From: Coriolopsis trogii
Lineage: Eukaryota > Basidiomycota > Agaricomycetes > Polyporales > Polyporaceae
NCBI GenBank assembly: GCA_020543525.1
Contig: JAHYIO010000036.1
Span: 372,001-436,000, forward strand
Direction of reading: 5' to 3'
Length of the DNA: 64,000 bases
Positions 27,286 to 64,000 of this stretch are shown in pieces. Each line of letters starts with the position of its first letter. The first letter of the stretch is position 1. Under the pieces are notes generated by a model. The model did not search any database. It was not told where the DNA came from and worked only from the letters and a program-made list of their open reading frames with translations. Position numbers and translations under genes: made by a program.

Positions 27286-28274
27286 GTCCCCCGATGTGTC
27301 ACTGCTAGTCATGTTCTAGTTGTCTGTTCGTAATGTAGCTTTGTTTAACACATGTCGTTATGTAGCTCTATCATTATTCTGTTGCGCTGCACTGTGTAGG
27401 ACTGTATCGCGTGGAACGCGTCTTCATGCGTCAAGTCTTGATATGACTGTGGGCTGCATGCACAAACGACTTGAATCACCCACGACGCGGCGAACAAGTA
27501 TGCGAGATGGTAACGATAGCAGGAGACGCACGCGCACGCGCGATCCGAAGTATACAGCATCAGACGAAAGGACAACGCCGTTGGCCACATGAGTATGACG
27601 TCGGTGCAGGAGACGAGTTGTGTGGAGACAGGAAGCGGAAGCGACACGGCCAACTTAGGTTGAGGTCGGAGCTCGAGTAGAGCGTCAATAGCCCCGTGTG
27701 GGCCGTCATTGTTGACTTGCTGGAGAGATTCTAGCATGCGCAGGCTAGATCAGGGCCACATGAACACGAGTGACATACCTGGCGTTGACTGAGTCCCGGA
27801 CGTGAGAAGAACATGGATACATACCAGGAAATAGTCAGGAGACGGGCGTTTCGCATCGCATGAAGAGGGATAGATCGCGGGAAACATCAGTCACCAGAGA
27901 AGCACATACGCATTCCCCTCCGGGTGGACCTGGACACTTAGGGGTCTTAGTTATGGATAGGCGTGCGTAGAGGAAATATGGTGCATGAGAGTGGCCTACA
28001 CGTGTTATGAATAGATGCGACCGGGTTTGGCGTTAGGAGAATGTATTGTCACGATGGTGACGTCAACTTCAGAGGTACACGTGACAAAGATATTACAGGC
28101 GAGAGTGAAAGTATTGTACAGTACAGTCGGATGCGCTTTGTAGTTGAAACAGGTTGGGGAAAGAAAATGGGTCAGCGAACATGACGAAGTATCGGAGGAG
28201 GTTGGAGAGGGAGATAGGACGATATTTCGGTGAGGGCAGATGTTGTGGCGAACAGATGGAATCACCAGAACTGT
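27286..28274. other. Transition zone, candidate left edge of the mobile element
   Basis: Lies between the last clearly host gene and the first gene of the G-skewed element. From about 27740 onward the plus strand becomes conspicuously G/A-rich, as in the rest of the element. A minus-strand open frame at 27345-27737 (130 codons, Cys-rich hydrophobic middle) has no recognisable domain. I could not identify a defined terminus. Confidence 0.3.
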
Positions 28275-29399
28275 TCAACAACGGGACTGGACGAAGCGGC
28301 CCCATTTGTCGATGAGGGGACGGACAATTTCGTTCCATTCGGCTACGCCGAGTTTTCCTTTCACGCGAGGAAATCTGAATATTTCGCAGTGCTTTTTGTG
28401 GCCTATGTATATACGGACACGAAGTATTACAAACGGATATAGAACGTAGAAGAGTGAATACGCGGATGGGGTCGTACTTACAGTCGCGACACGTTTCTCG
28501 GAGACGCAGGGATCGTTCGGCGAGTTCAATGTGAATGAGGCGCTCGAGTTTGTGGCAGGCTTTGCTAGGCGGTCCGATATCGAGAGCCTCGAGTGCGGCG
28601 TCGTCTTTGAGCGGGACGTGGCCGATTTGATAGGAAGTTGGAGACGGCCAGAAGCCCAGGAGGACCGGCTGCGAACGTGGGCATGATTTGGCCCATTCTC
28701 GGAGGCGTCGTTTGAGCTTAACAGCGCGACCGATTTTGATGTCGACGAAGCCTCGTGGCGCTTTCCCTGTTGGATGTCAGAGGGAGGGAGGGTGTAATGA
28801 GTAGTAAAGGAGTACTTCGGACGAGGTATGCGTAAATGTATCCGTCTTCATCAGCCGATGAGATTGGTTTCTTCATGGCGTTTTGGAGACGTTGACGTGT
28901 GTCTTCTGAAAGGTCTGCACATATGTAATCTACACGGTTTAGTAGTAGCGATCAGAAGAGATTGGAAGAAACACACCGTCATACTTAATGCGCCGTCTAT
29001 TGGCGCGTTTCATGGGACGTTCACAAGGCATGTAGTCGAATTTGTAGTGGTGGGAACGGGGAGTAGCAGAGGGAAAGAGATGCACAAGGCAAAGTACCTA
29101 GAGATAGATCTCCGATGCTGCACGTCAATGGAGAGTTATCGCGAGAAGGGGGGTCAGTGTATGTGATAATGGTCACCGCAAAAGCAGTGAGAGCTGTTCA
29201 GGTAGACGTCGGATGTCTCTGAGGGATGCGATGAGCGTACACGACCCGGAGAGCGTGCAGGACAAGAGAAGGACGAGGCGCGGGCGCCTATGCGAAAGTA
29301 GGTTCGCGGTGCCGCAGCGTGGTGTGGTAGGTGCGCATGACGAGGCCGAAGCATACGGGTACTCCCGAATTGGATATGTGCTGCAGGAAGCGGGTGCAT
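28275..29399 (-). CDS. T5orf172/GIY-YIG-like nuclease-family protein
   Basis: Spliced minus-strand exons give the T5orf172 (DUF1766, MUG113-like) fold. Upstream segment: ICADLSEDTRQRLQ. The GIY-type strand is DEDGYIYAYLVR, joined across an intron to FVDIKIGRAVKLKRRLREWA. Then follow a variable part, the helix HKLERLIHIELAERSL, and CRDCHKKHCEIFRFPRVKGK completing the metal/His-Cys region. The end at 28275 is RPLIDKWGRFVQSRC. This family belongs to the GIY-YIG endonuclease superfamily and is common in phages, giant viruses and basidiomycete genomes. The N-terminal exon (ATG 29399 or a later Met near 29353) is uncertain. In this context it may nick or bind DNA for the element; that is inference. 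Confidence 0.68.
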
Positions 29400-29499
29400 A
29401 CTGGATGACTTGGGTGCGAAACTGGATCCGACGTGCTCTCGGTGTGCGAGTGCTGCTATATGGGGTAATAGGTATATATTGAAGCAGAAATGGATGTAC

Positions 29500-31000: not shown

Positions 31001-34000
31001 TCAAGCCGAACAGGAGGGACAGTTACGAGGATGCACCGGTTTGAGTCGGGGAGACAGGGGAAGCGGAATGTCGGGTGTGACTGGACGAGTGATAGTCGTG
31101 TTGCGTGCGTGTGGTGAGCCTGGAGTGTGGAGAGATTGGTCGAGCTCCGATGGTACAGGCGGAATGGTCACGGGGTCAGGAAGATCCATATGGGATTCGC
31201 CAGCGGTTGCATAGGTAATCCGAGGGGGAGTGGTAACAGCGGGTAATTCAGCAGGCTCAAGGGGAGGTGGACCGTCGTCACTGTCAGTGTCATTGTCGAT
31301 ATCAACGGCATATGAAGCCGAACGTGAACCCTGTGCGCGGTGCACTACAGGAGTCATGCTGTTTGGGACGCCAAACATGGTGGGAAAAGTCGGAGCACAC
31401 GTGCGGAGGTAGTACATGCCGGTTTTCAAACCCTTCCTCCATGCATGGAGGACCACGCGTTTCTGTTATGCGGATAGAATAGCGTAAGTACAAGGCGAGG
31501 CGCTGCAGTGGAAGTTGGCTCACCGTGGTAGCAGCGGATGGGGTATGCATGTGAATGGTCATGGATTGAGTCTGGTCGATGAAAGGACCACGATCGGCGG
31601 CCATGTCGACGATGGTAACTGGGTCTATCTCCCACACGGTGCGATAAAGTCGTTTGAGGTTATCGGGTATCGAGGGAATGGATTGAATGGAGCCTGTTCA
31701 TCGGACATGTGGAGTACAGTAAGTGGGTAGGTAGCGTTCGTAGAACGCACAATGACGTACCGTGAGAGCGTAGTACGTCGATATGAACGGTGGGCGTCCA
31801 CGCCCCAGCGGACCGGAGGTCCCTTACAAGGCAGGGAAGGATACGGGTAAAGTCTCCACTGAGGGTGCGATGATGCGTGATGAGACTGTGGGATTGTGTT
31901 AGTAAAGAGGAGATGTGTGTGGAATGATAGTGACCTGTGATGTGGATCAGTACCCTCCGAGTTCCCAAGCAGATGGGACGTAGTAGCGGTGGGCATCTGA
32001 GCAGTAATCACTGAGTTGCGGAGTCCAGTGGTAGACGCGCGACGACGGATACTGTCGAAGTCGTACCGACCAGATAGAGTCACGGATGGCCACATGTCGA
32101 TCTGGAGTTGACCATGGGAGGCAGGCGAGTCTTCCCATGCATCGCACGGACCGAAGCGAGCAGCGAGGTCACACGATGTATCTAAAGCTGCATGGTAAAT
32201 GGTTTCGTATATGAGGCGGTTGGTGACACGAGCGTCGTCGGAGTCGTAGGGGTAACCAAGGAGAATGAAGGTGTCGGCGAGTCCCTGGGTGCCAATGCCG
32301 ATAGCACGAGTGATCAGAGCAGCGTCACGTGCAGCGGGCGTGGGGTAGCTGCACGTGTTGATAAGTTTATCGGTGTTGGCGACAGCGATTTTGGTGAGAG
32401 CATGGAGGCGGTCATAATCGAAGTCACCCGGTCCTCGGACAAAGCGAGGAAGTGCGAGGGATGCCAGAATGCAAACGGCAGTTTGGTCTGTGGCAGAGTA
32501 CTGAACAATCTCAGCACACAGATTAGACGATCGAATGGGTCCGAGGTGCTTCTGATTGTTCTTAACTATGGAAGGTATTAAGGCAGAGACGATTGAAAGT
32601 GATGATGGCGCGTACAGTTTATGGCGTCCTGGAACATAATGAACGGGCAACCGGTTTCTTGGAGTGCGTCTGCGATGGTTTGCCATAGGTCTCTGGCGGG
32701 AAGGGTGCGGAATGGAGTGACGGTGGCTTCAAAACTCGTGTAGGCTGCCGTGAAGTCGGGTCCGTAGACGTCAAGAAGTTCAGGTACGTCAGGAGGGTCA
32801 AAAAGGGACCAACTCCCATCTGCTTCCAAGCGTTCCATGCTGAAGGGGAGAGAACAATAAGTAAACGCGCCGATGGAGCAAATGTCCACTTACAAAACAT
32901 CGGGGAGCCACAGAGCGGGAAATACGTTCTTCATCCGACCACCGCGCAGCAGTCGCATGGCACGACACATCACGATCTCCTGAACTTCGGGGTGCCATGC
33001 GGGCACGTAGACCGTGCACGCAGAAGTCCGAGTGGAGCGACATTCGGAGGTGAAATGCGCGTGAATCTCATACAGTTGAAGTAGAGAGAGAGCGCCAGGG
33101 CGAGGGTCGGGGTAGGGCCTGGGAAGCATGAGAAAGGCCGCGTACTATAGCACGAGGGATACGCACCTTGCCGCGGGAATAGCTCCCACGGAAAGTCCAA
33201 CTCCACCGTCAGAGAGCCACAAGCGATCAATGTCGACCAGATCATCCAAGAGGCATTCAGGCGAGCGAGCATCTGGTGTATAAATGAAGCAAGAGGCGTA
33301 GTTGGGGCGCAGAGTGCCAGCGTTGTAGAGGACTGGGGACGCATGTGTATAAAGTTGGCGAGAAAGGACGTCGTATGTAACCAATACAGCGGGAAGGTCA
33401 CCAGGATGAAGCGTCAGTGCAACACGCATGTAGAGGAACTGAGGACGTTCTATAGTTTGGAGGTCCCGTTTGAGAAGGTAAGAACGGATGAGGGTTTGGA
33501 CGGCCTCACTGTGTGGTATATTTGGTGAGAATGGGTAGGTAACGGGAATCGGATGGCAGGGCTTACTATGCGAAGAAGAAGTCCCGTTCATGATGGAGGG
33601 CGTTGTCCAGCTCGTCTAAGTAGGGAGCCGCGGTTCGAGCGAGGGTCGCATTGAGTACAGCGTCTTGTCCTGGTGCAAGGGAATTAGAGCCATATAGTAT
33701 CATAGAAAGGGTAACACACCAGAGGAGTAAGTCGTTATCCACTCGCTGAAGGATTTGGTCACCGTCTTGTGTATGGCAGAAACCGAAATCCGACCGGCGA
33801 GAATCGCGTAGTCGGGATGACTGGAAGCGTATGCGTTGATGGTAGTGGCTGTAAGAGACTAGAAGAATCGTGATATGTGAAGTGAATGGAAAGGCATAAG
33901 AAGATATGTGCACGCACCCGAAGATCGGCGGTAGTTATCTGAGGAGGAAGGCTGGCGACAATGTGAGAGACAATTCTACCACGCGATGTTAGGAAATGTC

Positions 34001-34272
34001 ACTGAGATACGTGATGGAATGCGTACTGCTCGAGGCGCAGATTAGGACAGTCAAGGTTCCATGTCAGCTGGATGAATGTGAGGCTCGACAATCTGGATGG
34101 TGTATGTGGACAGAGGAGCGCACGGTGTCTATAGAAGAGCGCAGCTGTAGGAAATTGTCAAATCAATCATGATAAGTAAGTAAACGGATAGGCTGACTTT
34201 CTCTACTTGGAATGGCTGAAGGCGGCTGTCGTAATCGCAGAGGATGAGAAGTGGTAAAGGATTAATGCGCAT
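31001..34272 (-). CDS. Ribonucleotide reductase large subunit (class Ia, R1), divergent
   Basis: Reduces ribonucleotides to deoxyribonucleotides together with R2. About eleven introns of roughly 45-70 nt join all conserved blocks in frame. The remnant ATP-cone is LCDYDSRLQPFQVEK, followed by SSHPDYAILAGRISVSAIHK and LIRSYLLKRDLQTIERPQFL. The first redox Cys is in NYASCFIYTPD. Then WLSDGGVGLSVGAIPAARP and FPALWLPDVFMERLEADGSW. The radical-site triad is in IRSSNLCAEIVQY (N, C, E), with the partner Cys in TAVCILASLALPRF. Further blocks: GIGTQGLADTFILLG, AQMPTATTSHLLGNSEG, SHGSIQSIPSIPDNLKRLYR and AADRGPFIDQTQS. The radical-transfer tyrosines are in WRKGLKTGMYYLRT. The C-terminus ends CPSCSA, the expected CxxC swinging arm. 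The specificity-loop region is non-canonical. The N-terminal 60 codons and first intron are the least certain. It is not the housekeeping copy, judging by its divergence. Confidence 0.9.
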
Positions 34273-34299
34273 GCGTACCCGTCTGGAAGGCGAAGGAGG

Positions 34300-35229
34300 A
34301 TAGTGTGGTAAGCGGGGGAGGGGGGAATGTGTGGAGGGAAGGTAGTGAAGACGTACTTCTCTTCTGTACAAAGGGATGGGTGCCGGGTGGATGCGTGGTT
34401 TGCATTTGTGCGTTGTGAGAGGTTGGTAGCTCATGGAAGTGTGGCCTATATGGAGATGCTTATATATGGGGCGTCGAGGAGCATTGCGTTAGCACGGAAA
34501 AAGGGTAACGATTGGTTGGTTACCTAGTCTGGGATGTATGGAAGGTAATATGACGAGATCGAGGTTGCATGGGAAGTAGGTTGCATGCGGTAGGGATTGC
34601 GGAATGGGACGCGAATATCGGTGACGGAAGTAGTGGTTGGGAGGATAGGATATAGGTGGAGGCTGAGAATGATACAGGTGTAGGTGGCTTTGAAGCGATG
34701 AGAAGGACGTGAGCGTATTCGCGTCTTGCCATGCATGAAAAGGGCGACATCGATCAGAGGATGTTTGGTATGTCGGTTCGTATTCGGGTAAGGCCTCGGG
34801 GGAGGAAGCTTGGGAAGCATGTGTGTTGCGATTGAAGAAGCGAAGAAGAGAGTAAGAAAGGATATGCGTCCCAAACAGTGGTCAGGCACTGTTAGGGGGG
34901 AAGGTTGGATCGAGTAGGACGCTGCTGTAAGACTGACGGAAAGGAGGGTTTTATGATTACGTAAGCTGCGCGGTTTGATAGTAGTAAAGATAGACATTTT
35001 GGTTGTTGAAGGGGAGACGGGCTCGATCAAGGAGTGGGCATGGTGATGCGATTATTATAATGCATATTGGATGGTTAATTGGTACATTGGTATAAGACCG
35101 TTCTCTAAATATTGACCTGATAACGGAATCGAGATACGAGGACGATGGAATCGTGCGATACATATCTCAATGTGTCGTGGCCAGTGCTATCGGAAGGGGC
35201 AGAGGTTGTAAAGGGTTTGAGGAGTATCG
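34300..35229. other. Unresolved block inside the element
   Basis: Upstream of RNR1 and downstream of the small basic gene. A minus-strand open segment at 34524-35030 is rich in Ser, Thr, Pro and Leu and has no recognised domain. It is probably untranslated sequence, or an unresolved multi-exon gene. Confidence 0.25.
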
Positions 35230-35966
35230 TCAAGTACGCGACGTAATGGAGCGACGACCGCTCATGCGTCGTTGTTTTCTGAAGGATCTGGGTGAAGGTT
35301 GAGAAGGATAATTCAATACAGCCAGAATAGCCGTGTACCTTTCAATGACCATATCGACTAGGGTACGCTCTGGGTAGGTGGCGTTGGTAACTTGCATGCT
35401 CTGTCCAGTTGCGTGACGGAGGACGAGGACATTTCCACGGATGTTGAGGCCCCAGAGAGTTTGTAGGGTGAGATTGCGGGGCGACAAATTTGGGTCCTTT
35501 GCGGAGATGATGGTATAATGATTGTTGAGGATGTGAGTGGTGGTAGGGATGCTTGTGAGACGCTGTCGACGGCTTTCGCAAGGGAACCAATGTGTGAAAT
35601 CAACATCGTCTACCCATCGCGATGCAGCGGTATCGTCAGCGAGGTCATGTGGAGTTACAGGGAGGCGGATGTAACGGGGCGGGCCACCATATACGGTGTA
35701 TATTATGGCAGTTACGCATGATCTGTTGGTATACTTGCGAAGAGCGCGATGAGGGGATAATATGTTGGACGAGGAAGAGGAACTAACGAAGTCGCATCTT
35801 CTTTGCATCTTGGTCTTCCATCGGCGAATACTTTGTGGTGTAGTGACAAACCGCTGCGTCGCGAAGGTCTAGATGGGTTGTGAATATGACAAGCGGCGAC
35901 GGACAATGGAGAAGGTGTGCCACGTACGGTACGTTGGTGACGTCTAACGGCGACAGCACCTGCCAT
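35230..35966 (-). CDS. Small basic conserved-hypothetical protein
   Basis: Five exons can be joined: MAGAVAVRRHQ; HLRDAAVCHYTTKYSPMEDQ (continuing DAKKMRL); a short YQQIM exon; then HDVDFTHWFPCESRRQRLTS, TTHILNNHYTIISAKDPNLS, TLWGLNIRGNVLVLRHATGQ and TLVDMVIER. The final exon is strongly basic (SFRKQRRMSGRRSITSRT) and ends at 35230. The product is roughly 150 residues. I do not recognise the family. The compact alpha/beta-looking core with a Lys/Arg tail suggests a small nucleic-acid- or protein-binding factor. A TATA box lies 25-31 bp upstream of the ATG. The intact splice structure indicates selection. Confidence 0.55.
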
Positions 35967-35990
35967 ATTGACGGCGTAGAGCGCACGTTG

Positions 35991-35997
35991 TTTTATA
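35991..35997 (-). promoter_or_regulatory. TATA box of the small basic gene
   Basis: TATAAAA on the minus strand, 25-31 bp upstream of the ATG at 35966, implying a very short 5' leader. Confidence 0.5.
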
Positions 35998-36455
35998 GGG
36001 CGGGGACAATGCAAGATACAGGCGAGCAATGAACCCGAGGGGGCTGTGGCAAGCTTAAGTGGCAAAGAGGGGAGTGTGATGGTATGGGTAGTAGAGCGGA
36101 ACCAGCGGCTGGGGGAGGTAGTGGTGGGGAGGTTTCAGCTGGGGAGCGGGGTTTGTAGATGTACAGGATTCGAGAAGGAGTTGGAGGATCTGCGGCTTGT
36201 GAGGGAGGTTTGCTAAACATGTGTATGGAAGACGTTCTGAGCGATATGGATGGATTGGGAGGAAGGAAAGGTTTGGACAGGTGTGTGGAGGCGAACAAGT
36301 CGGAAGCGAGTGCGGAAGCGATGGAAGGATAGGTCCAAAGACGGAAGCTGACATAGAATGGTGCCGTTGTCAGCTAGAAGTTTCAGTGGCTTGGATGTGA
36401 ATGTATGGCGGGCAAGGGAAATGATGTAAACTGGATTCGGTTGACTCACAGGAGT
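35998..36455. other. Short divergent intergenic region
   Basis: Between the small basic gene (-) and the acidic nuclear-type gene (+). Minus-strand open segments (36055-36354, 36213-36719) are Pro/Ser/His-rich shadows without splice or domain support. Confidence 0.3.
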
Positions 36456-36463
36456 ACTATAAA
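36456..36463 (+). promoter_or_regulatory. TATA box
   Basis: CTATAAAGG-type element 54-61 bp upstream of the ATG at 36517, in correct orientation for the acidic nuclear-type gene. Confidence 0.5.
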
Positions 36464-36516
36464 GGGGGAGAGATGGTAGGGCGGGGAGGACGACACCATC
36501 GCCAGCGCAGTTCAAC

Positions 36517-38087
36517 ATGGCTCCTCCAGCGCAAGTTACTGTTGAGGAGTGGAAGATCCGGCGGCTTCGGCCTACAGATGTGCCGTTTGGACAGGCAGTG
36601 CGTAGTCTAGACGGTGACAATCCGTTGGCGGTGCTTGTGAATATAGGTCCTGGAGAGTGGACGGTGAGTGTCATGTTTTTGTGAAGCGATGACCTTACTA
36701 ACGAGTCGTGTGCGATCATAGTTTTGCATGCCTGATACGGATGTGCCGGTCGTGTTTAGTTATGCTGCCGTGTTTTCGGATGCGGATGATTACTTCACTG
36801 GTAATTTGGTCATAGACGACAACGAGATACCGGGCTCGCTGAGTGAAGAGAACGTGTAAGTGAGAGCACATTGATGGGCATGCAGTGGCTAACGACCCTT
36901 TAGTGTCCGTCATGCAGGATTTCGAGCACAGTACACGTACATCTTGGAAGCGACGGGTGACCAGAATATGTTCACGCTGCAGAAGGTACGTATCACCAGA
37001 TGTGAGTATCCGGATGTATCTGACGTTGTAATAGGACGTCGAAGATCATGTACGGTGTGTCGACGGCTTTAATAGCCGTCGGTTGCCTCGGACGACATGG
37101 CAAGATGGATCTACGGGTAATAAGACGCGATTCTGGATGCGGACTCCGATGTTTCTGAAGGTCAAACCGAAGGAGCGGAAGCCGAAGCCTGCTGCACACT
37201 TGCATGAATGGGTGGTATTGGCCGAGAAGCGAACTCGGAATTTCAAGGCCAACCCTGATCGTCCTATGCTATGGGCCATAGAGGGCGACAAGCTGAAGAA
37301 ATTGGAGGAGTGTACGCCAGACGTGCTAGAGGCTGGCGACGTGGTGGTTTTCACCTTCACTCTATCGTTTATAGAAGGCCAACTGGCGTGGAACCCACAG
37401 TATTTTCTGATAGATGTAGTGCGGGTCCAGGCCGTGGACGACGAGGGCCGGGCCGCGTTCCGGCCGCTTACCGCACCGGACCTCCAGAGTACGGGGCGCT
37501 TGTCTTTGCAGAGCGGTGAGACCGTCGCAGGTGTGTTTGGTCTGTGCTTGTGGTCTTAACACGGGAGTTCGCTAACTAGATGCGATCGGCTGACGCTGAT
37601 CGTGGACGGTCATAGGTGCAGGTCTTAGCGGGAGTGCGGGATCACGTGCGGATTCTGTGACCGTGAATAGGATTTGTGATGATATGCAGAGCAAGACCGA
37701 GTCACCGGAAGGGAACACAGTTGGTAATATTGAGGCAGTGGGTGAGAGGAGGGAAAGTCCCCCGTGGCTTCTGGAGTCTATGGACGGATCCGACGTGGAC
37801 GCCGCAGTCAAGGTCGTCGAAGAGGAAGTCGGATCCGGGCCTGTTGCCGGTGGCTCCAGTGGAGCGCGTGGGTTGAAACGAGGCGTGATGTCTGCACAGG
37901 ATGTGGAGGATCTTGGGCGCGATGGGGGTGAAGATGCGTCGGCAACTGAAGGGTCGGTTGAAGGTGAGATTTTCAAAGTGGGTGTGATTGGAGACGTTCG
38001 GTATTGACAGCGTATTCGGTTACAGGCGAGCCTGGGATGGTATTCGTGAGCAAGAGGCGGAGTAAGCGTGCGCGAGTTAGAGTGTGA
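36517..38087 (+). CDS. Acidic nuclear-type protein, possible single-strand DNA-binding/OB-fold accessory
   Basis: Six exons join in frame: MAPPAQVTVEEWKIRRLRPT with RSLDGDNPLAVLVNIGPGEW; FCMPDTDVPVVFSYAAVFSD; VRHAGFRAQYTYILEATGDQ; a long exon with TTWQDGSTGNKTRFWMRTPM, EWVVLAEKRTRNF and VLEAGDVVVFTFTLSFIEGQ; an acidic low-complexity region (VVEEEVGSGP, SAQDVEDLGRDGGED); and a last exon GMVFVSKRRSKRARVRV, a clear nuclear-localisation-type cluster, ending at 38087. The beta-rich middle (DVVVFTFTLSF, YFLIDVVRVQAV) plus acidic tail recalls ssDNA-binding proteins, a typical helper for rolling-circle elements, but I cannot assign a family. It is one of the few plus-strand genes in the G-rich half. 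Confidence 0.6.
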
Positions 38088-45200: not shown

Positions 45201-45292
45201 GAGGAGCGACAATGGAAGACAACACACGCGAAACGGGAGTGTATTTGGGTCACCTATAACATCAGGAATATATGAAGGGGTAGAATACGGTG

Positions 45293-49598: not shown

Positions 49599-49635
49599 TC
49601 GATGGGGTACGTATGACGAAAACCGGGAGTGTGGT

Positions 49636-49643
49636 CTTTTATA
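49636..49643 (-). promoter_or_regulatory. TATA box of the MYND gene
   Basis: TATAAAAG on the minus strand, 38-45 bp upstream of the ATG at 49598. Confidence 0.5.
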
Positions 49644-49679
49644 CCGGAATGAATTCGGCGTGCGCACGTGGTGAAGGGC

Positions 49680-50076
49680 GCAGGGGTTGGTGAGCGGTGC
49701 AAGATAGGTCCCTTGTAGTATAGAAATTTAGTATACGAGGATTGGAGGGAGTAAAAGGTAGCAAATATATCACAAATACGCTCATGTACTTTATGATTGC
49801 AAACTCATAATCAGGATTTCGGCCCGCATCGCCTAAACAATCTCAGCCTGCATGTAAGCACGTCAACTCATGAACTGCAACAGGCTAGCAGACCCGTCTG
49901 AATATTACGGATCCACCGTATCATGGCAAAATGTTGTGAGCATTCAAAACCGGTATGGAACATGTCATGTACGAAGACTGATAGGCAATAGACGACAGAT
50001 AAAAAGTTGAGTGGTGTCAACATCATAGGGTTAGCTCGGGACCACAGAATGACAATCGAACCTCTCGGATCGCGAG
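49680..50076. other. Short intergenic region
   Basis: Between the MYND gene promoter and the 3' end of the bHLH-like gene. Nothing was recognised. Confidence 0.35.
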
Positions 50077-52600: not shown

Positions 52601-52624
52601 GAATATTCTCATATATATATATCA
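52601..52624 (+). promoter_or_regulatory. (AT)n / TATA region
   Basis: gaatattctcatatatatat followed by atca, 27-50 bp upstream of the ATG at 52651; a plausible core promoter. Confidence 0.4.
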
Positions 52625-52650
52625 ACCCAAACCATCGTCAGCGGCGGAGT

Positions 52651-53395: not shown

Positions 53396-53499
53396 AGCTT
53401 GAGTGTGACAGACCGCTGTATCCGCGTTGCAGTATGATGTCAATCGCACTCGTTTATTATGCCTGGAATTGGGAAGAGCGGTGCGTCTTATGATTTAGC

Positions 53500-54036: not shown

Positions 54037-55210
54037 TCATTCCGCCGGGCGAGCGACAGGAGCTCCGATATAGTCGCTCACGGGTCGTTCAAAGAAGTTA
54101 GCGCGCGCCACGAGGGCTGTCGACGCCATGAACGGGAACTGAGTGTATGGTCAGCTCAATACTCGCACCACACTACGAAACTTACCGGGTTGTCTTGGAA
54201 GAAAAACCGATTGTAGCCGAGACTAACCAAAAGATAATCGGCCACATACTCCACGTAAGCGCGCATCATCGCGGCAGTCATGCCAGGCAAGTTGTTGGGC
54301 AAAGCCGCTGTAAACGAAGAATGCGTATCAGAAAATGAGGACGGCGTGATCTCGCAATTGTCATGCTTACCACAAAAGAACTCGCACTCCAAGTCAACAG
54401 CCTCCCAAACAAGAGCATGGGCATGAGCCGGAGACAAAGGCTGTCCCACATGATGGTACATCAAGCAGGCAAACCTAGTGTGCATCTGCTCGTCTCTGGA
54501 TATGAGCTCGTTGGAATGAGTGAGGCCGGGCAAAAGTCCGCGATCTCGGACCCAAAATATCGCCGCAAATGAGGAGGAAAAAAAAATTCCTTCCACTATA
54601 GCGAAAGCAAAAAGGCGCAAAGCGAGGGAAGCCTCCTTATTGTCAATCCAGCCTTTGGTCCATGCGGCCTTGGCTTGCACTGAAGGCATGTGCTCCACCG
54701 CATTGAACAACGTGTGCTGCTGAAGGGCATCTGGAATGAGCTCGCTGATGAGCATGCTGTACACTTCCGAGTGTACACTCTCACTGGCCTAGGAAGTGAG
54801 TCAAGTGACCACAATATAAAGACGAAGAGAAACACACATGAGCATCTGACAGGCATAGAAAGAGCGAGCTTCCAGTATGTCAACTTCAGCACAGAAACGC
54901 TGCGCAAGGTTATCGACAACCATCACGTCCGAGGCGGCGAAGAAAGCCAAAATAGCGGACAAGAAGCCACGCTCGTCGTTGGTCAGCGCATGTTGCCATT
55001 CCAGACGGTCGATGCTGAGATCGATCTCTTCCGCTGTCCACATACACGCATGAGCGACTTTGTAAGCGGCCCACATCTAAGACGTCGGGCGGATATAAGC
55101 CGCATTCTCACACTCGAAGACAGCATACTACTCACCTCCTTGTGCTGTATAGGAAAAAGCGAGTAACGGGATTGAGTAGGCATAGCTAAAGCCTGAGTGG
55201 ACATGGACAT
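54037..55210 (-). CDS. Ribonucleotide reductase small subunit (class Ia, R2)
   Basis: Houses the di-iron/tyrosyl radical cofactor that activates R1. Four introns: about 55080-55132, 54784-54837, about 54309-54370 and 54139-54185. The spliced protein is about 316 residues: QSRYSLFPIQHKE, AHACMWTAEEIDLS, LAFFAASDVMVVDNLAQRF (first Asp ligand), ILEARSFYACQML, then IESVHSEVYSML (Glu, His and the radical Tyr), IVEGIFFSSSFAAIFWVRDR (Glu), SNELISRDEQMHTRFACLMY (Glu and His), YVEYVADYLLVSLGY, and NPFPFMASTALVARANFFER. All metal ligands and the radical Tyr are present. It lacks the usual acidic/aromatic C-terminal heptapeptide that docks on R1; the protein ends IGAPVARPAE. The N-terminus is also short. 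It is divergently transcribed from the Rep-helicase. Confidence 0.92.
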
Positions 55211-55814
55211 AGCGAAAGAGGGGATGACTGAGTGGAGCCTGACAAGTCCAGGCAGAGACCGAGTGCTTTTAAGGGATGCCGACCGACATGCATAGATAAT
55301 TGTCCGAGCTGGTTGAGTGGATATATCCGTCGTGTGCTCGTCCATACTCGGAATCTGGCGTTTGACGTGACTCTGCATTCGGCTGTTCGGGCCTGTTCAG
55401 GGTCACCACGGAATTTTCCGAATCGTTCTGCTATGTGAGGTACCGACATAGATTTCAAATGCTCACTCCTGACCGCTTCTATACCATGCAATGGACCGAT
55501 TCGCAATCGCACTGCGCAAACAGTGTGTACCATTCAACGTACCGATGTGTTGATGTGCCGGATTTTCCATGCAATGTACCGACGCGCATATGCACTTAGT
55601 GGACGGCTTCTACGATGCGAAGAGCTAATGCGCACGCGCAGCCCACCATTAAAGGACATCCTGCTAAGTCTGACTCGTCTTCCTTGCTCTGAATTGGGAA
55701 AGGAATGGTACCTTACGAGTAGCTGGGACGTCTTTAGGCCTCCGCGCGGTTGTGGGCACGGCATAGTGCAACCCACGTCGACAATCACAATCATACGGAC
55801 AAGAACATCAGACG
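55211..55814. promoter_or_regulatory. Shared divergent promoter of RNR2 and Rep-helicase
   Basis: 604 bp separate the two start codons. A TATA-like CTTAAAAGC (minus strand, about 55265-55273) lies about 55 bp upstream of the RNR2 ATG. No clear TATA precedes the Rep-helicase. No coding segment is supported. Confidence 0.45.
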
Positions 55815-58800
55815 ATGGCTGCATCGACTCATACATCCCTCAATGATCTTAACTCTGCGCTGAGGACCATCGATGATTCCGGAGATATCGGTATACATCT
55901 TTGACATTCGCATTGTGCATCTACTAATCACCTTTCTTGTCAGATGATGCCCAATACCCCCAGCACACGGGCACATCTCCGGTGTCCACGTCGATCCTCC
56001 CTTTGAGAGAGAGTTTGCATATGCATGGTAAATACCGGAAATGCTGTATGGTCGCATGAATATATATTCATTCAATTGGTTCTGTTCTCATAGATGCTAC
56101 GCAACCTCTCTCATCACGACGTGTCGCTACAGACGACCCCGTAATAGGTGACGAACATAGAAAACAATATCTAAAGTTGGCACTCACACTCATACAGGTC
56201 GTATTGAGCGCAGCCAAGACATGTCAGCGACCATACGGTGGTGTGATGAAGAAGAAATTCATTTGGATTTCTCACACACCTTCGTCGGAGTGTACGTCGT
56301 CTACGACGATTTCAATGCCTCCGCGCTCGCTGTCAAAGGAGACGACGTTGTAATCAACGCCTCTCTCACCAGACTATTCTCTCTCTACTCTATGTGGAAG
56401 AATGCGGATCTCCGAGAACTTGCACATGCGCATGAACTCCCTGTTACCACTCGGGACACGGCGAGTAGCCTTATCCAAAAACTAACCGTGCACGACTGTA
56501 GTGAGCTATGCTATCCCATCATCACTTGCTTCACAACCCTCCGACGGCCACGAACGGATGAGCAAATCATGCGATCTCGTTTGCTACCACCTGAAGGATC
56601 TGCTCCTGATCCCACATCATATATGCAAATTTTGGACCGAACACTGCGCAATCAGATCATCGCAGAATGGCAAGACAGTCTTTCGACACCGAAACTCAAG
56701 GCCGCAGTTTGCGCTCCTTGTGGGCGGCGCATAATACAACAAACTGTCCGACAGGTTCATCCCCGAGACTTCGACCTCCACTTATTGCAAAACGACAATC
56801 TTCCCGATCACGTTCTTCCGTCTACATACGCCTTCCACACCTATCGGCGCGCTCTTCTTGAACCTGCAGGTATGGAAAATCGGTGGCGATTGGCCTGCAT
56901 TAACATGTGTCCGTCATGTCACCGGGAGATCGTCACTAACGAACGAATGCCCAAACTTAGTCTGGCGAACTGGCTTTATTATGGTATAGCGCAGCTTCCC
57001 CCCCAAGTCAAGACCGTGTTCGAGTCCTCGAGTCAATTTGAACGGTTACTGATCGGACGAGCCCGTGGTAGTCGGATATCATATCGATTTACCGAACTCC
57101 GGAATCGGAAGACTGTCGCAACCTCTGATGGCACAGACGAACGCCCTTCAGGAGGAAATTCCGCAGCCTCACAACGATGCATACGCGGAAATGTGTTGGT
57201 AATGCCTCAGAACTCGACCCAGCTCAACACCGTTCTCCCTCCACCGCCTTCCAGCATTCGGGACACTGTTTGCGCAGTGTTTGTAGGACGCGAGAAGCCC
57301 ACCAAGGAGACCATCGGGAAACTCGGTCCCGTACTTGTTCGCAAATCAACCGTCAAAACACTGATCGCTTTTCTCACTTCCAGCAATTCTCACTACATGT
57401 GCGATACTCACTTTCACGGTTTCAGCCAGGAGAACCTCGACATGCTTTTCAATGCTGAGGACGTCAACAGGGATGTTTCCGTGCCATGCGCTATGGAGAT
57501 CGGCTTCATTGATGACACGACTACGGTGGCCGCTAGTACAGCCGGTTATACCCGACAAACTGAGGATGGCTCCACGTTATCGGACGACACGGCGTTGCTC
57601 ATGGAGAACGTGGGTTACACATGCGGCGACGACACGCCGATATCCTACAACGACATGAAGATGAAGGCATTATCACACTGTCTGAACAAGGGCCAATTCG
57701 TCCGTTCGCAATCTGGAGATCGTTTCCTTCCTGACTTCCAGAATCCCAGCTTATTGACATGGTTGTTCCCGCATTTAGATCCCTGGGGAATTGGTGGATT
57801 CCACCACCCGAGTCGCATCATACCGATCTCTATGGAAGAGCAGCTTCGATATCTACTCCAACTCCACAACAGTCCCTTCGAACGCGACGCCGACTTCGCG
57901 TTTGTCTACTACAACATCCTGCAGAAGAAGACGATATGCGACTCCGTACGCTTCCGAGTCAAAGCTTCGCAACAGAGGGAGATTGTGCAACGATTGCTCC
58001 GCGTGGATCGTAAGTCACTGGAAGAACTAATCCAGCGATACGATCGAAACCCTCGGTATGAGCCGTCCTCCCCAACGGAACTCAGCATACTCGCTCTGGT
58101 CAATCGAATGGGAACTGTGCTACACGAGCTACCTGGCACGAGCGGATACAAACTGAAGATGCGAAACGAAATACGAGCACTAGTGACCTATCATGGTACG
58201 CCGGCGTTTTTCCTTACGATCAATCCATCCGACATCCATCATCCCCTGGTACGTCTATTTGCGGGACACGACGTGGATATCAATCGGCTGGAAAACGGTG
58301 TGGAGCTCGATGATTGGACAAGGCGCCTCCTCGTTGCCCGCAATCCAGGTGCGTGTGCAAGATTCTTCCATCAGGTGATATCGTCTTTCATAGACATCAT
58401 ACTTCGGTACGGAAAACACACCCCTGGTGTCTTCGGACACTGTACCGCATACTACGGGACAGTAGAAACCCAGGGCCGAGGTACGCTGCATTGTCATATG
58501 CTTATTTGGATCAAAGACCACCCGTCCCCGCAGCACATGCGGGACATGATGGTAGAATCAGCCGACTATAAGCACCAGGTATTCGCTTGGTTGGAGAGTA
58601 TCATCAAATGCGAACTCATGGGTGCCCAGAGAGTTACTCAGGAGCTCGACCACATCGCTCTTCCCCGCCCTCGCTTCTCAGAAAATGAGGGCTGGCTCCA
58701 CCCTGGCGTGAAGCCTGCGCCGCTGATAGCAGATATGTCCCCACAAGAGTTCGAGGATCGATACAAATCGTTCGTGAACGAGCTCGTCGAGCAGTTCAAT

Positions 58801-61800
58801 TGGCACGAACATACGGAGACATGCTGGAAATATCTCCGGGCAGGTCAGAAGAGATCCGACGACACATGCAGAATGCGTATCGACGGTGTTACACGGGCTG
58901 TTACCGAGATCGACGACGAAACAGGCTCCATTCTACTCCGACGCTTACATCCACGCATTGCCAACTACAATGACCTCATCATCTTCCTCCTCAAGTGCAA
59001 CATTGATATCAAGCACGTCGGCTCCGGCGAAGGTGCGAAGGCGCTCGTCTACTACATTACTGACTACATCACGAAGGCGTCTCTTCCTACGCACTTGGGG
59101 CTTGCCGCTCTTTTGTATGCACTGAAACGCACTGATAGTAAGTGGCAAAGTCTGGGATCGTGGACATCGTCACAAGACACGAGTGCTCTCACTATCTTGA
59201 TGAACAGCATGATGTCTCGCCAGGAAATATCACACCAGCAAGTCATGAGCTATCTAGTTGGTGGTGGCGACCACTATACCAGCCACAGATTTCGAATTCT
59301 GCACTACGGTTCCTTCGAACGCGTTGTACTGCAATATTGGACCAGACCTCTGCGCGCCATAGTGAGCAGACAGCCGTCGCCATCCGCATCCTCCGAACAC
59401 CTTGACAGCAGGAGCAGAACATCCCCCGAACCTACCCCAATGTCTTTGAACGCTGTCAACATCGCTGACATTCGATTCGTAGATGGAGTTTCGGACAACA
59501 GCGAGCCTGACGTGACTTTGACCTTGGGCGACGGGACCATCTCTGCTATCACTCAACAACATGACTACTTCTTCCGACCTTCACAAGAACCCTTCAACTC
59601 CATGGGTCTGTATCAGTACATCGGTCTCACCGAACGAGCTTCCACAGGTAGAGAAGCGGCTCGTCTGGACAACAGACAACACCCGACCTCCACACGCGGT
59701 CGGCCACCGGAACCAAGAGGTCGGTTCCTCATGGAACATCCACAATATGCCACACATATAGTACGCCGACGGGTTGTTTGGGTTATTCCAGTCGTCCTAG
59801 GAGATCGCATTCCCCGGTGTGATCGAACAGACGACGAGCGAGAACGGTGGGCAAGAACCATGCTCACACTATTTGCACCTTGGAGGAATCCTCAGGACCT
59901 AAAGACCGCCGATGAAACGTGGATGGCTTCTTATATGCGTCGCCGCTCGTCTTTCCCCCCCGAACACCTGACCATCATGCGAAACATGAATGTTCTTTCC
60001 GAATGCAAAGACGCGCGCGACAAAGCAAGCGCTACCAGACAGGCGTCTGCTCTCGCCACCGCAATTGGCCTGGATCCCAACCAACCCCTCCCGGACGACC
60101 CTACGCTTGCATTCGAACGTGCCCTCACCTCCGAGGAAGAAGGTTTGTCGGAGATGAATAGCACTGATATTCCCGTTGCTCAGGAGTTCGATGCCTCTCT
60201 TGTTGACACTCTGGACAGGCTTATATCCGTCGAAGCCCGTGCTGCCATTGACTGTCACTTCCGATCATGTCCGCAGTCCCATGACCCGCAGACGGAATCA
60301 CCTTCTCTCATCTCCACTACAGAAGAATGGGATCGCTTACAGAATACACGCACCTTCATGAAAGCTCTCAAGCGTAAGCGACAGTCAAACTCGGACGATA
60401 TCGACAATGGTGCGCAGACAATTCGAAATGTGCGACCGCGAACTAGTGTCCATCGTGAGGCCGTTGTAGACATCGTCCAACTTACCAACGACACCGCCAC
60501 GTCTACACACATACCGTCCGTTGCAACGCACGATCAACTGCGGAGCATTATTGATCAGGTCGTCCTGGAATTCCGACTTCAGCATAACGAAGAGCAGCTT
60601 CGTGCGTTCTCTATCTTCGCCGAACATGTGTGCTTCGGTGGTCCACAACTCTTGATGTACATGGGAGGAGTGGGAGGAACAGGGAAATCGTACGTCGTTA
60701 ATGCCATTCTTCGTCTTTTCATCCTATTAGGTCGACGCAAGGAGATCCTAGTCTCCGCCCCAACCGGTGCTGCCGCTACCCTCATAGGCGGTTTTACCAT
60801 ACACTCCCTCCTCCTCCTCCCCAACTACAGAGGCGTAGACTTCCAATTACTCATATCTACCTGGGACGGCGTTGAATACGCAATCATCGACGAAGTATCC
60901 ATGATGAGTGCATACTTCATGTGCGAAGTCGGTGTCCGACTTCAACGTGCGAAGGCGCGTGATGGGAAAGACGACACACGACCATTTGGAGGAGTCAACA
61001 TATTGTTTACAGGTGACTTCGGCCAGCTACGTCCCGTCGGCGGGAAGTGTCTATTCAGCCATGATCTCGTCTCAGACCATCATTTCATCAATCCACATCA
61101 ATCGAAGACAATCACCGCACTCCGGGGCGCATACTTATGGCGACTAGTTCACACTGTTGTCATCCTCACGAAGAACCAACGTCAAAGCGCGGACCAGCCA
61201 TACGGTGAACTCCTATCACGCATTCGCATTGGTGAAAGCGCAAACGCGCTGTACCGTGGCACCGCTAACGATTACCTCACTCTACAATCTCGTCTGCTCC
61301 ACAAGATCCGACACGACCCATCCACATCGGCACCCTCCCCCTTTCATAACAGTCCCATCATCGTTGGAACCAAAAAGATACGCGACATGCTCAATCTGCG
61401 ACTACTCCAACATCACGCAACTACCACAACCGAGGACGTCCATGTCTACTACTCTCGGGACACTATCGAGGGAGAGCCCATCCCGGAACCCGCACTTCAC
61501 CACGTATGGTTACTGCCAACAACCGTCACCAACGACGCCATCGGCAAATTCCCTCTCTTTCCCGGCATGAAGGTCATGGTACAAGAGAATATAGCTTTTT
61601 CTCATCACGTCGTCAATGGCGCTATAGGTACCGTCCAGAAAATCTACTACACCCAGGAGAACAGCCGTCGCTATGCGTCAATGCTACTGATACTTATTCC
61701 GGGAGCGGGAAAGGTGCACGCCGATTACCCAGATGATCATGTCCCTATCTTTCCCGAAACCACCACTTTTTCGTGGACAAGACGAGCAAAGACTGCAAAC

Positions 61801-62127
61801 ACAGACGCCGAAATTGTGAGAATACAACGCTTACAACTGCCCTTGCTTCCCGCATACGCATATACAGACTACAAGGCACAAGGACGCTCACTCGACACGG
61901 CAATTGTGGATCTTGCCAGCGCTAGAAGTCTGCAAGGTGTGTACGTCATGCTGTCCCGAGTACGCTCCTTGAACGGGCTTGCCATCCTGCGGCCCTTCGC
62001 CCCAAAAAAGATTCACGACCGTCTGTCCAGAGAACTTCGCACCGAGATGCGTCGCCTTGAGGATCTCGCAACAGTCACTGCCATCCGCTTCCATTCTCCG
62101 TCTGCAAGGTATATCGTTGCTCGCTAG
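55815..62127 (+). CDS. Helitron Rep-helicase (HUH/Y2 nuclease + PIF1 helicase)
   Basis: Four exons (55815-55890, 55944-56027, 56094-56147, 56198-62127) total 6144 nt, exactly 2048 codons including stop. All three introns are phase 1. The N-terminal region has zinc-type pairs (CAPC, CPSC) and a DUF6570-like block (LSLANWLYYGIAQLPPQV). The Helitron_like_N nuclease follows: motif 1 FFLTINPSDIHHP (about residue 741), HUH motif GRGTLHCHMLIWI (about 835) and the two-tyrosine motif ALVYYITDYITK (about 1022). The PIF1 helicase has Walker A GGVGGTGKSYV (about 1560), Walker B IIDEVSMM (about 1634), FTGDFGQLRPVGG, and motifs VVNGAIGTV, YTDYKAQGRSLDTA and YVMLSRVRSLNGLAIL. It should catalyse rolling-circle-type transposition. 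There are no internal stops, so it is potentially active. Confidence 0.95.
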
Positions 62128-62550
62128 CGCTATCCCGAAGGAGATAACCACTCTTCTTCTATGCTGCCCAAAGCATCCCCACACCCTCGCCGCCCTGTCG
62201 CTTTCCATTCTTGTCGCGACCTCTTTCCTTATTTGTACACCTTCCAAGCATGTATCACACCTTCCCGGCCGCATGTATACCGAACAATACACAATACATT
62301 CCGCATTTGCTCAAGCTTCACACTCTGAACCTATTCTACCAACCAATCGGGAGCCGATCACAGCACACGCAGCACACCCATATCACACTGAATATATAGA
62401 TTCCTTCGAGCAAAAACAACTCCACGCCCGCAAACGCGAATCCAAGTCGACCTCCCTCACTTTTCACTTCCCCACCCATTCCATCCGCGCACTCTTCAAC
62501 TGCCAATCCATTACCACGTGATTTTACCGCGGCCACCAGGACCGCTGACA
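62128..62550. other. Intergenic, no gene seen
   Basis: C-rich DNA between the Rep-helicase stop and the next ATG at 62551. The upstream reading frame of the next gene extends to 62518, but from a GTG codon. No terminal hairpin or CTRR end is evident here. Confidence 0.4.
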
Positions 62551-63855
62551 ATGTACAACACCCTGACTTACGGACCACCGTCCCTCACGAGGACAACGAA
62601 CGTCTCCGTACGGACACCCCTCCCCACATACCGCAAAGACAACTCGCTCAACCTCACCCACATGTATACTCAATCATCGTTCCTCCACACCGCGACCGGA
62701 GTTAACCCGCTCCACAACAAGGCGCATTTACTCAGGTCTGCACTCACACAACCCCCTTCACCGAGTCCCTCTAATAGAGCTTCCAGCCTGCATCCGGAAT
62801 TGCTAGACCTCATTGCAGATTCGATGGATATGGCCGTCGTTGGAAGATGGAGAAAAGTGAATCGTCATCTGTATACCATCGTCACCTCTTCTCTTTATAG
62901 GACGATGCGCGCCCTGCTGTCGCCTTTCGCACCTTACCCCCTTGCGCTCCTAGGACACATCACAACACATAACGCGATGATCGGCGGTGTAACAGCCGCC
63001 GCGTTCATCCAACGCGATCGATCAAAGCCCCACCAGCTACTTGTCGTCTACACGGACCGACCATCCTTCCAACCTCTCGTAGACAGCCTCACACACTGCC
63101 CTAGTAACAGCCACGACATCAACAACCTGGAGGTGGGGACGTATACCGGTCAATATGTCACCGATCGTGCCATCGACGCCTACGCCATCGTCCGCGTTGG
63201 GGGTGGCCGTACTATTGTCATCTTGCGGTCCTGCTCGCCGACAATTGTAGCAGTGATAAGCCGCGCACCTTCCACTGCCCATATGACACTCTTCAATGAG
63301 AACCTGTGGGCATCCGCTTACCCTCACCCCACCCTACACGACCGCGGCTTCCTTGCCTCATGGCGCCTCCCTTTTCACACCACAGTCGATCGAGACATTT
63401 TCAACGATTTCGCTCGAGCCGGCTTTAGATTTGCTGTTTCTCCCTCTGCATGGGCAGACTACGTTGGCCCCGACGCCGTGGGATTCCCGACCTACCCCTG
63501 CTTGAGAACCCGCTTCCTATGTCCTCACCAATCTCGGTTTTTTGGTGACAAGGGCTCCATGATCGGGTTCATCCGTCCCCTCCAGTCTACTCCCGACTAT
63601 CATCGCCTCCATCATCGCTTTCCATTTGGCCCCACTGTCATCTGGCGACTATACACTGCATATGACTGCAACGGATATTGCCAAAACCTCGATCCCCTGC
63701 TCCCCGTAGGCGTCTTATCAGTACCCACCCTCCTCATGTGCCCCTCCCCTCAGCAACCCCTGCCCGATCACTCTTCTGTGCATTCGTCCGTGTATCCGTT
63801 TGCGTATGACAGAATGCCGCCACTCGCCATGCGACGTCGACGAATGTCTCAGTAG
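62551..63855 (+). CDS. F-box-like / nucleotidyltransferase-fold-like protein, copy 2
   Basis: Single exon of 434 residues from ATG 62551. A Thr/Pro-rich leader is followed by an F-box-like segment (LHPELLDLIADSMDMAVVGR, then WRKVNRHLYTIV). The core includes HNAMIGGVTAAAFIQRD, VYTDRPSFQPLVDSL and IVILRSCSPTIVAVISRAPS. The C-terminal block (TRFLCPHQSRFFGDKGSMIG, TVIWRLYTAYDCNGYCQNLD, PLLPV) matches the gene at 45293-46390 (CPTQARFFGDRGS, AIWRLSNVLTCENRC). The two copies are diverged paralogues in opposite orientations. It is only 423 bp downstream of the Rep-helicase, same strand. The enzymatic residues of a true nucleotidyltransferase are not evident. Confidence 0.62.
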   Translation: MYNTLTYGPPSLTRTTNVSVRTPLPTYRKDNSLNLTHMYTQSSFLHTATGVNPLHNKAHLLRSALTQPPSPSPSNRASSLHPELLDLIADSMDMAVVGRWRKVNRHLYTIVTSSLYRTMRALLSPFAPYPLALLGHITTHNAMIGGVTAAAFIQRDRSKPHQLLVVYTDRPSFQPLVDSLTHCPSNSHDINNLEVGTYTGQYVTDRAIDAYAIVRVGGGRTIVILRSCSPTIVAVISRAPSTAHMTLFNENLWASAYPHPTLHDRGFLASWRLPFHTTVDRDIFNDFARAGFRFAVSPSAWADYVGPDAVGFPTYPCLRTRFLCPHQSRFFGDKGSMIGFIRPLQSTPDYHRLHHRFPFGPTVIWRLYTAYDCNGYCQNLDPLLPVGVLSVPTLLMCPSPQQPLPDHSSVHSSVYPFAYDRMPPLAMRRRRMSQ

Positions 63856-64000
63856 TGTCCGCCTTTTGCATTAGACAGTCGACGGACCCTGCTAGTAACT
63901 GACGAGATAGCACCGCATATTAGACAACCTCGCCTTTGTGTCCGGCTACATGTACTTCCATAGACTGACCGTACTCTGCCAGTGATCTAATCTTACACTC
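63856..64000. other. Window end, element continues or ends here
   Basis: 145 bp of non-coding DNA after the copy 2 stop codon. It contains a CTAG at 63892-63895 that could mimic a Helitron 3' terminus but lacks a strong adjacent hairpin. Confidence 0.3.

What the first reader, a model, noticed from the sequence alone, without database searches (positions are those of the whole stretch)
27740..64000. A very large Helitron-related element carrying its own ribonucleotide reductase
Seen: an uninterrupted 2047-residue Rep-helicase, both RNR subunits, a T5orf172 nuclease-family protein, a Zn2Cys6 protein, two bHLH-like proteins, a MYND protein, an acidic NLS-bearing protein and duplicated F-box-like proteins, all within 36 kb and with a base skew unlike the left 27 kb. 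Known: Helitrons transpose by a rolling-circle-type mechanism and can capture genes; RNR supplies dNTPs and is a typical gene of large DNA viruses, not of transposons. Inference: this is one autonomous giant element, or a virus-like replicon built on a Helitron Rep, that boosts host dNTP supply during its replication. I know of no described Helitron with a complete RNR pair.
Basis: partly seen in the sequence, partly recalled or inferred. Interest (0 to 1): 0.92.

Follow-up and report, generated by a model that had tools for sequence, protein, structure and literature searches.

The report
Giant Helitrons carrying ribonucleotide reductase genes
A fungal chromosome holds a family of very large jumping genes that appear to copy themselves with a rolling-circle type of enzyme and that carry their own pair of genes for making DNA building blocks, a cargo not expected in a transposon.

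Summary
The element is one 36,890-bp unit, window 27907 to 64796 (its last 796 bp lie past the window). A 97.5% identical duplicate of its right flank, inside the window, is a continuous empty site: 13 bp of left flank run straight into the right flank, without target duplication. Four more loci of this genome carry the same order R1, gene Y, R2, RepHel. Conserved termini pair up at three giants, five copies of 5-9 kb and one of 1.3 kb; the one 5-kb copy read in full is a deletion derivative of a giant. The reductase is not viral: window R1 keeps all 11 introns of the host's own R1, and RepHel, R1 and R2 give the same best tree for the five giants (R2 weakly). Window R1 and R2 keep every catalytic residue tested (seven each), but Asp57, needed for dATP feedback, is missing in 15 of 15 readable element-clade R1s and present in 22 of 22 orthologues. 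Best reading: a Helitron lineage with a resident, probably feedback-released reductase feeding its replication; the dNTP step is inference. Papers seen put fungal Helitrons at 5-14 kb; eight searches listed none with RNR.

The parts
27907..64000 (.). Giant Helitron-like element; runs on to L025:796 (64796 in window numbering), 36,890 bp in all. Its right terminus is L025:730-796, outside the window: ACCTTCCCACCCCA..., then CCTGTCCAC / GTGTCCAGGAA
   Evidence: Termini shared with other copies; empty site
27907..27937 (+). Left terminus: TACGCATTC then CCCTCCGGGTGGACCTGGACAC, with the inner inverted-repeat arm CCTGGACAC
   Evidence: Conserved in three giants; 17 genome hits at up to 3 mismatches against 1 for the reversed pattern
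28096..28776 (-). T5orf172 (GIY-YIG type, recalled) protein near the left end; also in the C5 giant beside R1 and at the right end of C20
   Evidence: Pfam PF10544 E 5.9e-9
31001..34372 (-). Ribonucleotide reductase large subunit R1, split by 14 introns in the model (a 15th at the end of the alignment is doubtful); start Met not settled
   Evidence: PF02867 and PF00317; spliced model
35233..35868 (-). Conserved protein X, next to R1; a Ganoderma gene model (P0162) begins with an X-like stretch and runs into R1
   Evidence: 54% to C20 and 39% to C33b over the aligned part; P0162 N-terminus printed, compared by eye
36463..37556 (+). Conserved protein Y (two exons, 36463-36681 and 37035-37556), present at all five RNR giants
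45296..46390 (-). Protein with an F-box-like N-terminus (by eye) and a nucleotidyltransferase-like fold, copy 1
49086..49727 (-). Cys-rich MYND-like protein (weak)
54055..55238 (-). Ribonucleotide reductase small subunit R2, split by introns; N-terminus not settled
   Evidence: PF00268; spliced model; sequence match to solved yeast R2
56221..62127 (+). RepHel: HxH motif, two-Tyr motif and PIF1-type helicase with Walker A
62518..63855 (+). Nucleotidyltransferase-like protein, copy 2
12662..13978 (-). Not part of the element: duplicate of its right flank, continuous across the insertion point (empty site; junction A at 13966)

Best explanation
A family of giant (about 37 to 55 kb) Helitron-like rolling-circle transposons in a fungus, probably a polypore. 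Shown by sequence: defined termini, insertion without target duplication, five diverged loci with one gene order, a derivative that kept the ends. The R1 came from a fungal nuclear gene (R2 probably too), most simply by one capture, and has been inherited with RepHel. Inferred: RepHel nicks one end and unwinds a strand while the other is copied; the element's RNR, its dATP brake apparently lost, raises dNTPs so that tens of kilobases can be copied when or where the host pool would not allow it.
For: Synteny of R1, R2 and RepHel at five loci and of gene Y. Termini: 17 and 20 hits against 1 and 2 for reversed patterns, paired. Empty sites for the window copy and for the 1.3-kb copy. The C3 derivative: about 2.75 of 5.3 kb matches C33b at 90-98%, both ends and an inner stretch. 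11 of 11 host R1 introns shared. Same best tree for RepHel, R1 and R2. Seven of seven tested residues intact in window R1 and in window R2. Asp57 lost in 15 of 15, its Arg partner in 14 of 15 element-clade R1s; the role of Asp57 from passages of PMC3267527.
Against: No transcription, circle or dNTP data. Only 2 of 5 giants (window, C5) keep both subunits canonical, and the C5 RepHel frame carries a stop, so of the five only the window copy has all three open and canonical. Element R1s sit on long branches and their N-termini align roughly (C5, C33b and P0143 badly). A cone can bind dATP without inhibiting, so loss of Asp57 is a hint, not proof. Support for the R2 tree is weak (73, 62, 45). Six of eight joined flanks found no empty site. 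Linkage of RNR to RepHel in other species was not seen directly.
Confidence: 0.75

Rival explanations
1. Passive cargo: the Helitron captured RNR genes by chance, as Helitrons capture gene fragments, and they do nothing for it.
For: In three of five giants R1 or R2 residues have changed; RepHel relatives without a detected RNR exist in this genome (C11, C7, C24, C23).
Against: Both subunits of one enzyme are kept, full length and with introns, at 45-60% R1 identity between copies; 22 of 28 readable element-clade R1s have all seven catalytic residues; the trees of RepHel and RNR agree.
Confidence: 0.12
2. An endogenised DNA virus or virus-like replicon that uses a Helitron-type Rep, RNR being a virus-type gene.
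For: Size and RNR pair recall large DNA viruses; a head-to-tail end junction exists at C30.
Against: R1 has the host's introns, so it is of fungal nuclear origin; no capsid-type hit in the ORFs scanned; a genome search with PF04451 found nothing, but no control rang, so it shows little; no match to six peptide patterns of the window RepHel in viral contigs.
Confidence: 0.06
3. The element's subunits act by joining or modulating the host RNR (mixed complexes, relief of feedback), not as a separate enzyme.
For: Copies with altered catalytic residues persist in C20 and C36; the consistently altered part is the regulatory cone.
Against: Window and C5 keep full catalytic sets in both subunits, which a modulator would not need.
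Confidence: 0.12
4. A chromosomal gene cluster into which a short Helitron inserted; RNR and the other genes are host genes.
For: RNR genes are normal cellular genes and carry introns.
Against: The empty site spans the whole 36.9 kb, the cluster repeats at five loci, and an end-conserving derivative lies elsewhere.
Confidence: 0.02

Closest known systems
Canonical Helitrons (Helitron1)
   Same: RepHel with HxH, two-Tyr and PIF1 parts; insertion with no target duplication, between A and T at the 1.3-kb copy
   Different: No 5'-TC with 3'-CTRR; giant size; RNR pair. Features of the class as stated in passages of PMC5148889
Helitron2 / non-canonical fungal Helitrons such as FoHeli (PMC5148889)
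   Same: Asymmetric inverted repeats and hairpin-type ends; some FoHeli groups have the ORF in opposite orientation; empty sites; joined ends (passages)
   Different: FoHeli are about 5 to 11 kb; another insertion motif; the word ribonucleotide occurs 0 times in the main text
HELPO Helitrons of Pleurotus ostreatus (PMC4289320)
   Same: Basidiomycete Helitrons carrying extra genes (passages)
   Different: About 7 to 14 kb in the rows seen, one to four captured genes; ribonucleotide and reductase occur 0 times in the main text
Fungal Helitrons with a TET/JBP dioxygenase (PMC12730594)
   Same: A Helitron carrying a whole accessory enzyme (passages)
   Different: Enzyme proposed to act against silencing; ribonucleotide occurs 0 times in the main text
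Large maize Helitrons, up to 39 kb (from PMC6431247 passages)
   Same: Size class
   Different: They carry gene fragments; full-length capture is called exceptionally rare there
Class I eukaryotic RNR (R1/R2)
   Same: Catalytic and metal-ligand residues in the window copy
   Different: ATP-cone residues matching Asp57 and Arg21 not kept

Membership tests
Helitron superfamily | RepHel protein: HUH/Y2 Rep domain plus PIF1-type helicase | tested here: met
   H757, H759, Y945, Y949 and Walker A residues invariant in 16 RepHels; motif meaning recalled
Helitron superfamily | Insertion without target-site duplication | tested here: met
   Empty sites of the window copy and of the 1.3-kb copy
Helitron1 (canonical) | 5'-TC and 3'-CTRR termini | tested here: not met
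   Ends are TACG/TAGG... and ...CCAGGAA. Read on the other strand, one end could begin TC, but the other then ends TAT, not CTRR
Helitron1 (canonical) | Insertion between A and T | tested here: inconclusive
   The next base is C or T in 11 of 12 right ends; window copy A then C, 1.3-kb copy A then T
Helitron2 / Helentron | Asymmetric terminal inverted repeats | tested here: met
   CCTGGACAC begins 22 nt in from the left end, GTGTCCAGG ends 2 nt from the right end
Helitron2 / Helentron | Terminal hairpin | tested here: inconclusive
   Of five right ends folded, good hairpins in the C33b and C28 types (z -3.1, -2.2), not in window, C20 and C5 types (z -0.2, -0.9, 0.4)
Helitron2 / Helentron | Insertion into TTTT/T or TT | tested here: not met
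Helentron | Endonuclease domain in RepHel | tested here: not met
   No such Pfam domain in the window RepHel
Large DNA virus | Capsid or packaging genes | tested here: inconclusive
   None in the ORFs scanned; PF04451 search without a ringing control
Class I RNR | R1 catalytic Cys/Asn/Glu/Tyr and R2 metal ligands with Tyr | tested here: met
   Window copy: seven of seven in R1, seven of seven in R2; residue roles recalled
Class I RNR | Enzyme activity | not testable with these tools
   Needs a bench assay

The most novel reading that the evidence does not exclude
A self-provisioning rolling-circle replicon: a Helitron lineage that domesticated a host reductase pair, removed its dATP brake, and multiplies as circles on the dNTPs it makes, halfway in lifestyle between a transposon and a DNA virus.
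Probability: 0.35. Interest if true: 0.95.

Novelty: new variant of a known kind. Interest (0 to 1): 0.86.

Why it matters
Helitrons are known for picking up gene fragments, and full-length capture is called exceptionally rare (PMC6431247 passages). Here a whole two-subunit enzyme has been kept while a transposon family diversified, with its regulatory site changed in a consistent way. That makes a concrete question testable: whether a eukaryotic transposon can be limited by dNTP supply and evolve its own source, as DNA viruses do. The family also widens the size range of fungal Helitrons several-fold over the papers seen, offers lightly diverged derivatives for studying Helitron ends, and warns that extra RNR genes annotated in polypores (25 database R1s in the element clade plus one fragment, from 10 named species) may be transposon genes.

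Tried and rejected
Viral origin of the RNR: set aside because of the shared introns. Loss of the ATP cone as a whole: considered, where the listing shows PF03477 in only 1 (P0146) of the 26 element-type R1s; rejected for the window because the splice model recovers a diverged cone; what is lost are single residues. T5orf172 as part of a terminal inverted repeat: not supported; it is near the left end in window and C5 and near the right end in C20, and 16 of its 19 genome hits lie elsewhere. F-box as the main domain of the duplicated proteins: Pfam gave nothing; the model (mean pLDDT 63.6) points to a nucleotidyltransferase-like fold, best PDB match E 2.9e-3, none at 0.001 or better. Protein Y: no Pfam, no homologue in the protein database, model of no use (pLDDT 36.8). 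Window RepHel in viral contigs: nothing. Hairpin of the window right end: not better than shuffles. Empty sites: 2 of 8 joined flanks gave one; the C20 giant was left out because its left end is not exact. Dropped rows: P0128, a fragment, left out of the R1 tree; only 15 of 31 element-clade and 22 of 23 orthologue sequences had enough N-terminus to count; among all 21 element-clade letters at the Asp57 column one is D (P0123).

Paper searches that listed no RNR-bearing Helitron: (open-licence PMC; others returned no paper at all). The four papers that hold the words Helitron and ribonucleotide reductase were opened for passages: three use them in unrelated places, in the fourth the held text has neither. 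Other papers were seen as passages only or as listings; none was read in full.
Full report
What is there. The window is G000:C33:372001-436000 of an unnamed 38.8-Mb genome in 39 contigs. Its right part holds a 1988-aa open frame (56161-62127, 1968 aa from ATG) with Helitron_like_N, DUF6570 and PIF1 domains, a split R1 gene (31.0-34.4k), a split R2 gene (54.1-55.2k), a T5orf172 protein (28.1-28.8k) and several unassigned proteins. The base skew changes sharply near 28k and again near 65k.

The same set at five loci. RepHel, R2 and R1 lie in one order and relative orientation at C33:403-430k (window), C20:2258-2292k, C33:1706-1738k (called C33b), C5:1537-1563k and C36:1591-1623k. Gene Y lies between R1 and R2 at all five; it also has four distant hits (28%) on C7, C10, C22 and C23. 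A decayed sixth set is suggested by an R1 with an inner stop (C33:958k) beside a broken Y (C33:962k). The host's own R1 (C20:155-158.6k) and two R2 genes (C34:1464-1467k) are separate and conserved. Matching proteins of the three giants fetched in full (window, C20, C33b) are mostly 30-65% identical; RepHel identity among all five is 59-73% over 571 columns, R1 45-60% over 678.

Ends. Comparing the ends of these three giants gave a left motif (CCCTCCGGGTGGACCTGGACAC and variants) and a right motif (ACTTTCCCACCCCA...GTGTCCAGGAA). As patterns with up to 3 mismatches they hit 17 and 20 places in the genome; the reversed patterns hit 1 and 2. At up to one mismatch there are 9 and 10 hits. Pairs on one strand define giants of 36.9 kb, about 54.5 kb (with a 6.5-kb Copia element inside) and about 44.7 kb; copies of 4.9-5.7 kb at C3, C5, C6 and C25; one of 9.2 kb at C30; and one of 1.3 kb at C36. 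For the C5 giant only the right end and for the C36 giant only the left end was found. Outside A|TAGG... and ...CCAGGAA| the flanks of the copies are unrelated to each other. The base after the right end is C or T in 11 of 12. At C30:1972.6k a right end is joined directly to a left end, as expected of tandem insertion or a circle, or of one copy landing on the end of another.

Empty sites. Joining the flanks of eight insertions and searching the genome gave an empty site for two of the eight. The 1.3-kb C36 copy sits in a repeat whose other copies run through the junction unbroken: 122 nt at 100, 99 and 98% (C33:279862, C3:2011478, C20:2051754), 120 nt at 98% (C30:1787399), and weaker ones at 85-87%. 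The window copy's right flank is duplicated inside the window (12662-13978, minus strand): 1093 of 1121 aligned bases are identical, and the match runs 13 bases into the left flank, CCAGAGAAGCACA, before it stops. So the whole 36,890-bp stretch went in as a unit, without duplication, most simply after that flank had been duplicated. The exact cut is ambiguous by one A. The other six searches found no empty site.

Derivatives. Of the 5.3-kb stretch at C3 about 2.75 kb matches C33b: its left end (92-95%), an inner stretch (98% over 1845 nt) and parts of its right end (90-98%); the rest is other sequence, partly a repeat also near the C20 giant. It is a deletion derivative that kept both ends. 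Four further places (C5, C6, C25, C30) have nearly identical end sequences; their insides were not read. This is how a transposon family with enzyme supplied in trans looks.

Origin of the reductase. A splice-aware alignment of my own puts 11 introns in the host R1; the window R1 has all 11 at the same residue and phase (one shifted by a gap), including a 4-base exon, plus three of its own; two of these, (664,1) and (720,0), occur in all five giants. The aligner is not told the host's intron places. Window and host R2 share two introns, (50,0) and (268,1). The R1 was therefore taken from a fungal nuclear gene. In a tree of 53 R1s the element R1s of this genome and 25 database proteins form one clade with support 1.0. 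The named relatives are polypores: Earliella scabrosa (8), Lentinus, Polyporus, Cerioporus, Ganoderma, Trametes and Daedaleopsis; the host R1 pairs with that of Laetiporus (0.91), hence 'probably a polypore'. The five R1s of this genome do not form one group inside that clade: window and C20 join a Daedaleopsis protein, the other three join two Earliella proteins, so the element lineages look older than these species. The grouping of the clade beside a bacterial R1 I take to be long-branch attraction, given the introns. RepHel, R1 and R2 each give (window, C20) against (C5, (C36, C33b)) as the best tree (ultrafast support 99/81/98, 100/61/87 and 73/62/45), which speaks for travelling together. 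In Ganoderma leucocontextum one gene model (P0162) starts with a stretch resembling window protein X and continues into R1, the neighbourhood seen here (likeness by eye).

State of the enzyme. Seven R1 positions (three Cys, Asn, Glu, two Tyr) are canonical in window and C5, not in C20 (five changed), C33b (one) and C36 (two). Seven R2 positions are canonical in window and C5, not in C36, C20 and C33b. RepHel is open in window, C20, C36 and C33b and has one stop in C5. In the wider clade 22 of 28 readable R1s have all seven, against 23 of 23 orthologues.

The brake. PMC3267527 (passages) says that mouse D57N no longer tells dATP from ATP, that D57N cells have raised dNTP pools, and that Asp57 bridges Arg residues including Arg21. 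At the matching column 0 of 15 sufficiently aligned element-clade R1s have Asp, against 22 of 22 orthologues; Arg at the Arg21 column is kept in 1 of 15 against 22 of 22. One further, poorly aligned element R1 (P0123) shows Asp, and several of the 15 align roughly here (C5, C33b, P0143). The same review warns that a cone does not guarantee inhibition, so this is a prediction to be tested.

How it probably works. Shown by sequence: movement as a unit, defined ends, enzymes intact by residue pattern in the window copy, inheritance with RepHel. Inferred: RepHel, as in studied Helitrons (recalled, and passages), nicks and unwinds one strand while the other is copied, possibly through a circle; the element's RNR raises dNTPs at that time. 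Which end is the 5' end is open: the inverted repeat lies at the right end and 22 nt in from the left end, the mirror image of the FoHeli layout described in PMC5148889, where some groups also have reversed ORFs.

What is known. Passages seen give fungal Helitrons 5-14 kb and maize up to 39 kb with fragments; some fungal Helitrons carry a TET/JBP enzyme. None of eight searches listed an RNR-bearing Helitron, within an open-licence library that misses much of the literature; the papers holding both words do not link them in the passages seen. I file it as a new variant of the Helitron kind.

Noticed in passing
window 28000-46000 against C20 and C33b copies: G over C skew of about 0.2-0.48 in the window copy is far stronger than in most of the two other giants; it turns negative towards and past RepHel. 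Cause unknown.
   Followed up: partly
C11:311462, C7:56150, C24:23945, C23:31300: RepHel copies with Rep scores of 114.5-114.8 bits (open frames 2119 aa in three, 1590 in C23), 12 to 56 kb from a contig end, without a detected RNR; distant Y-like genes lie on C7, C10, C22 and C23. Perhaps a second, subtelomeric giant lineage.
   Followed up: no
C20:2250337-2256842 (L037): A Copia retrotransposon with 99.5% identical LTRs sits inside the C20 giant.
   Followed up: yes
C33:1701574-1704517 (L030): A long tandem repeat inside the C33b giant near its left end.
   Followed up: no
C33:1730167-1732011 (L033): The inner stretch kept in the C3 derivative overlaps a MYND-like reading frame of C33b, in the opposite orientation to the window's.
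   Followed up: partly
C30:1972583-1972604 (L051): A right end joined head to tail to a window-type left end.
   Followed up: partly
C34:1464133-1467171: Two different ordinary R2 genes of the host, divergently placed.
   Followed up: no
L025:797 onward and window 12662-13978: The element landed just ahead of an ATG in a duplicated stretch with Cys-rich, zinc-finger-like reading frames (by eye).
   Followed up: partly
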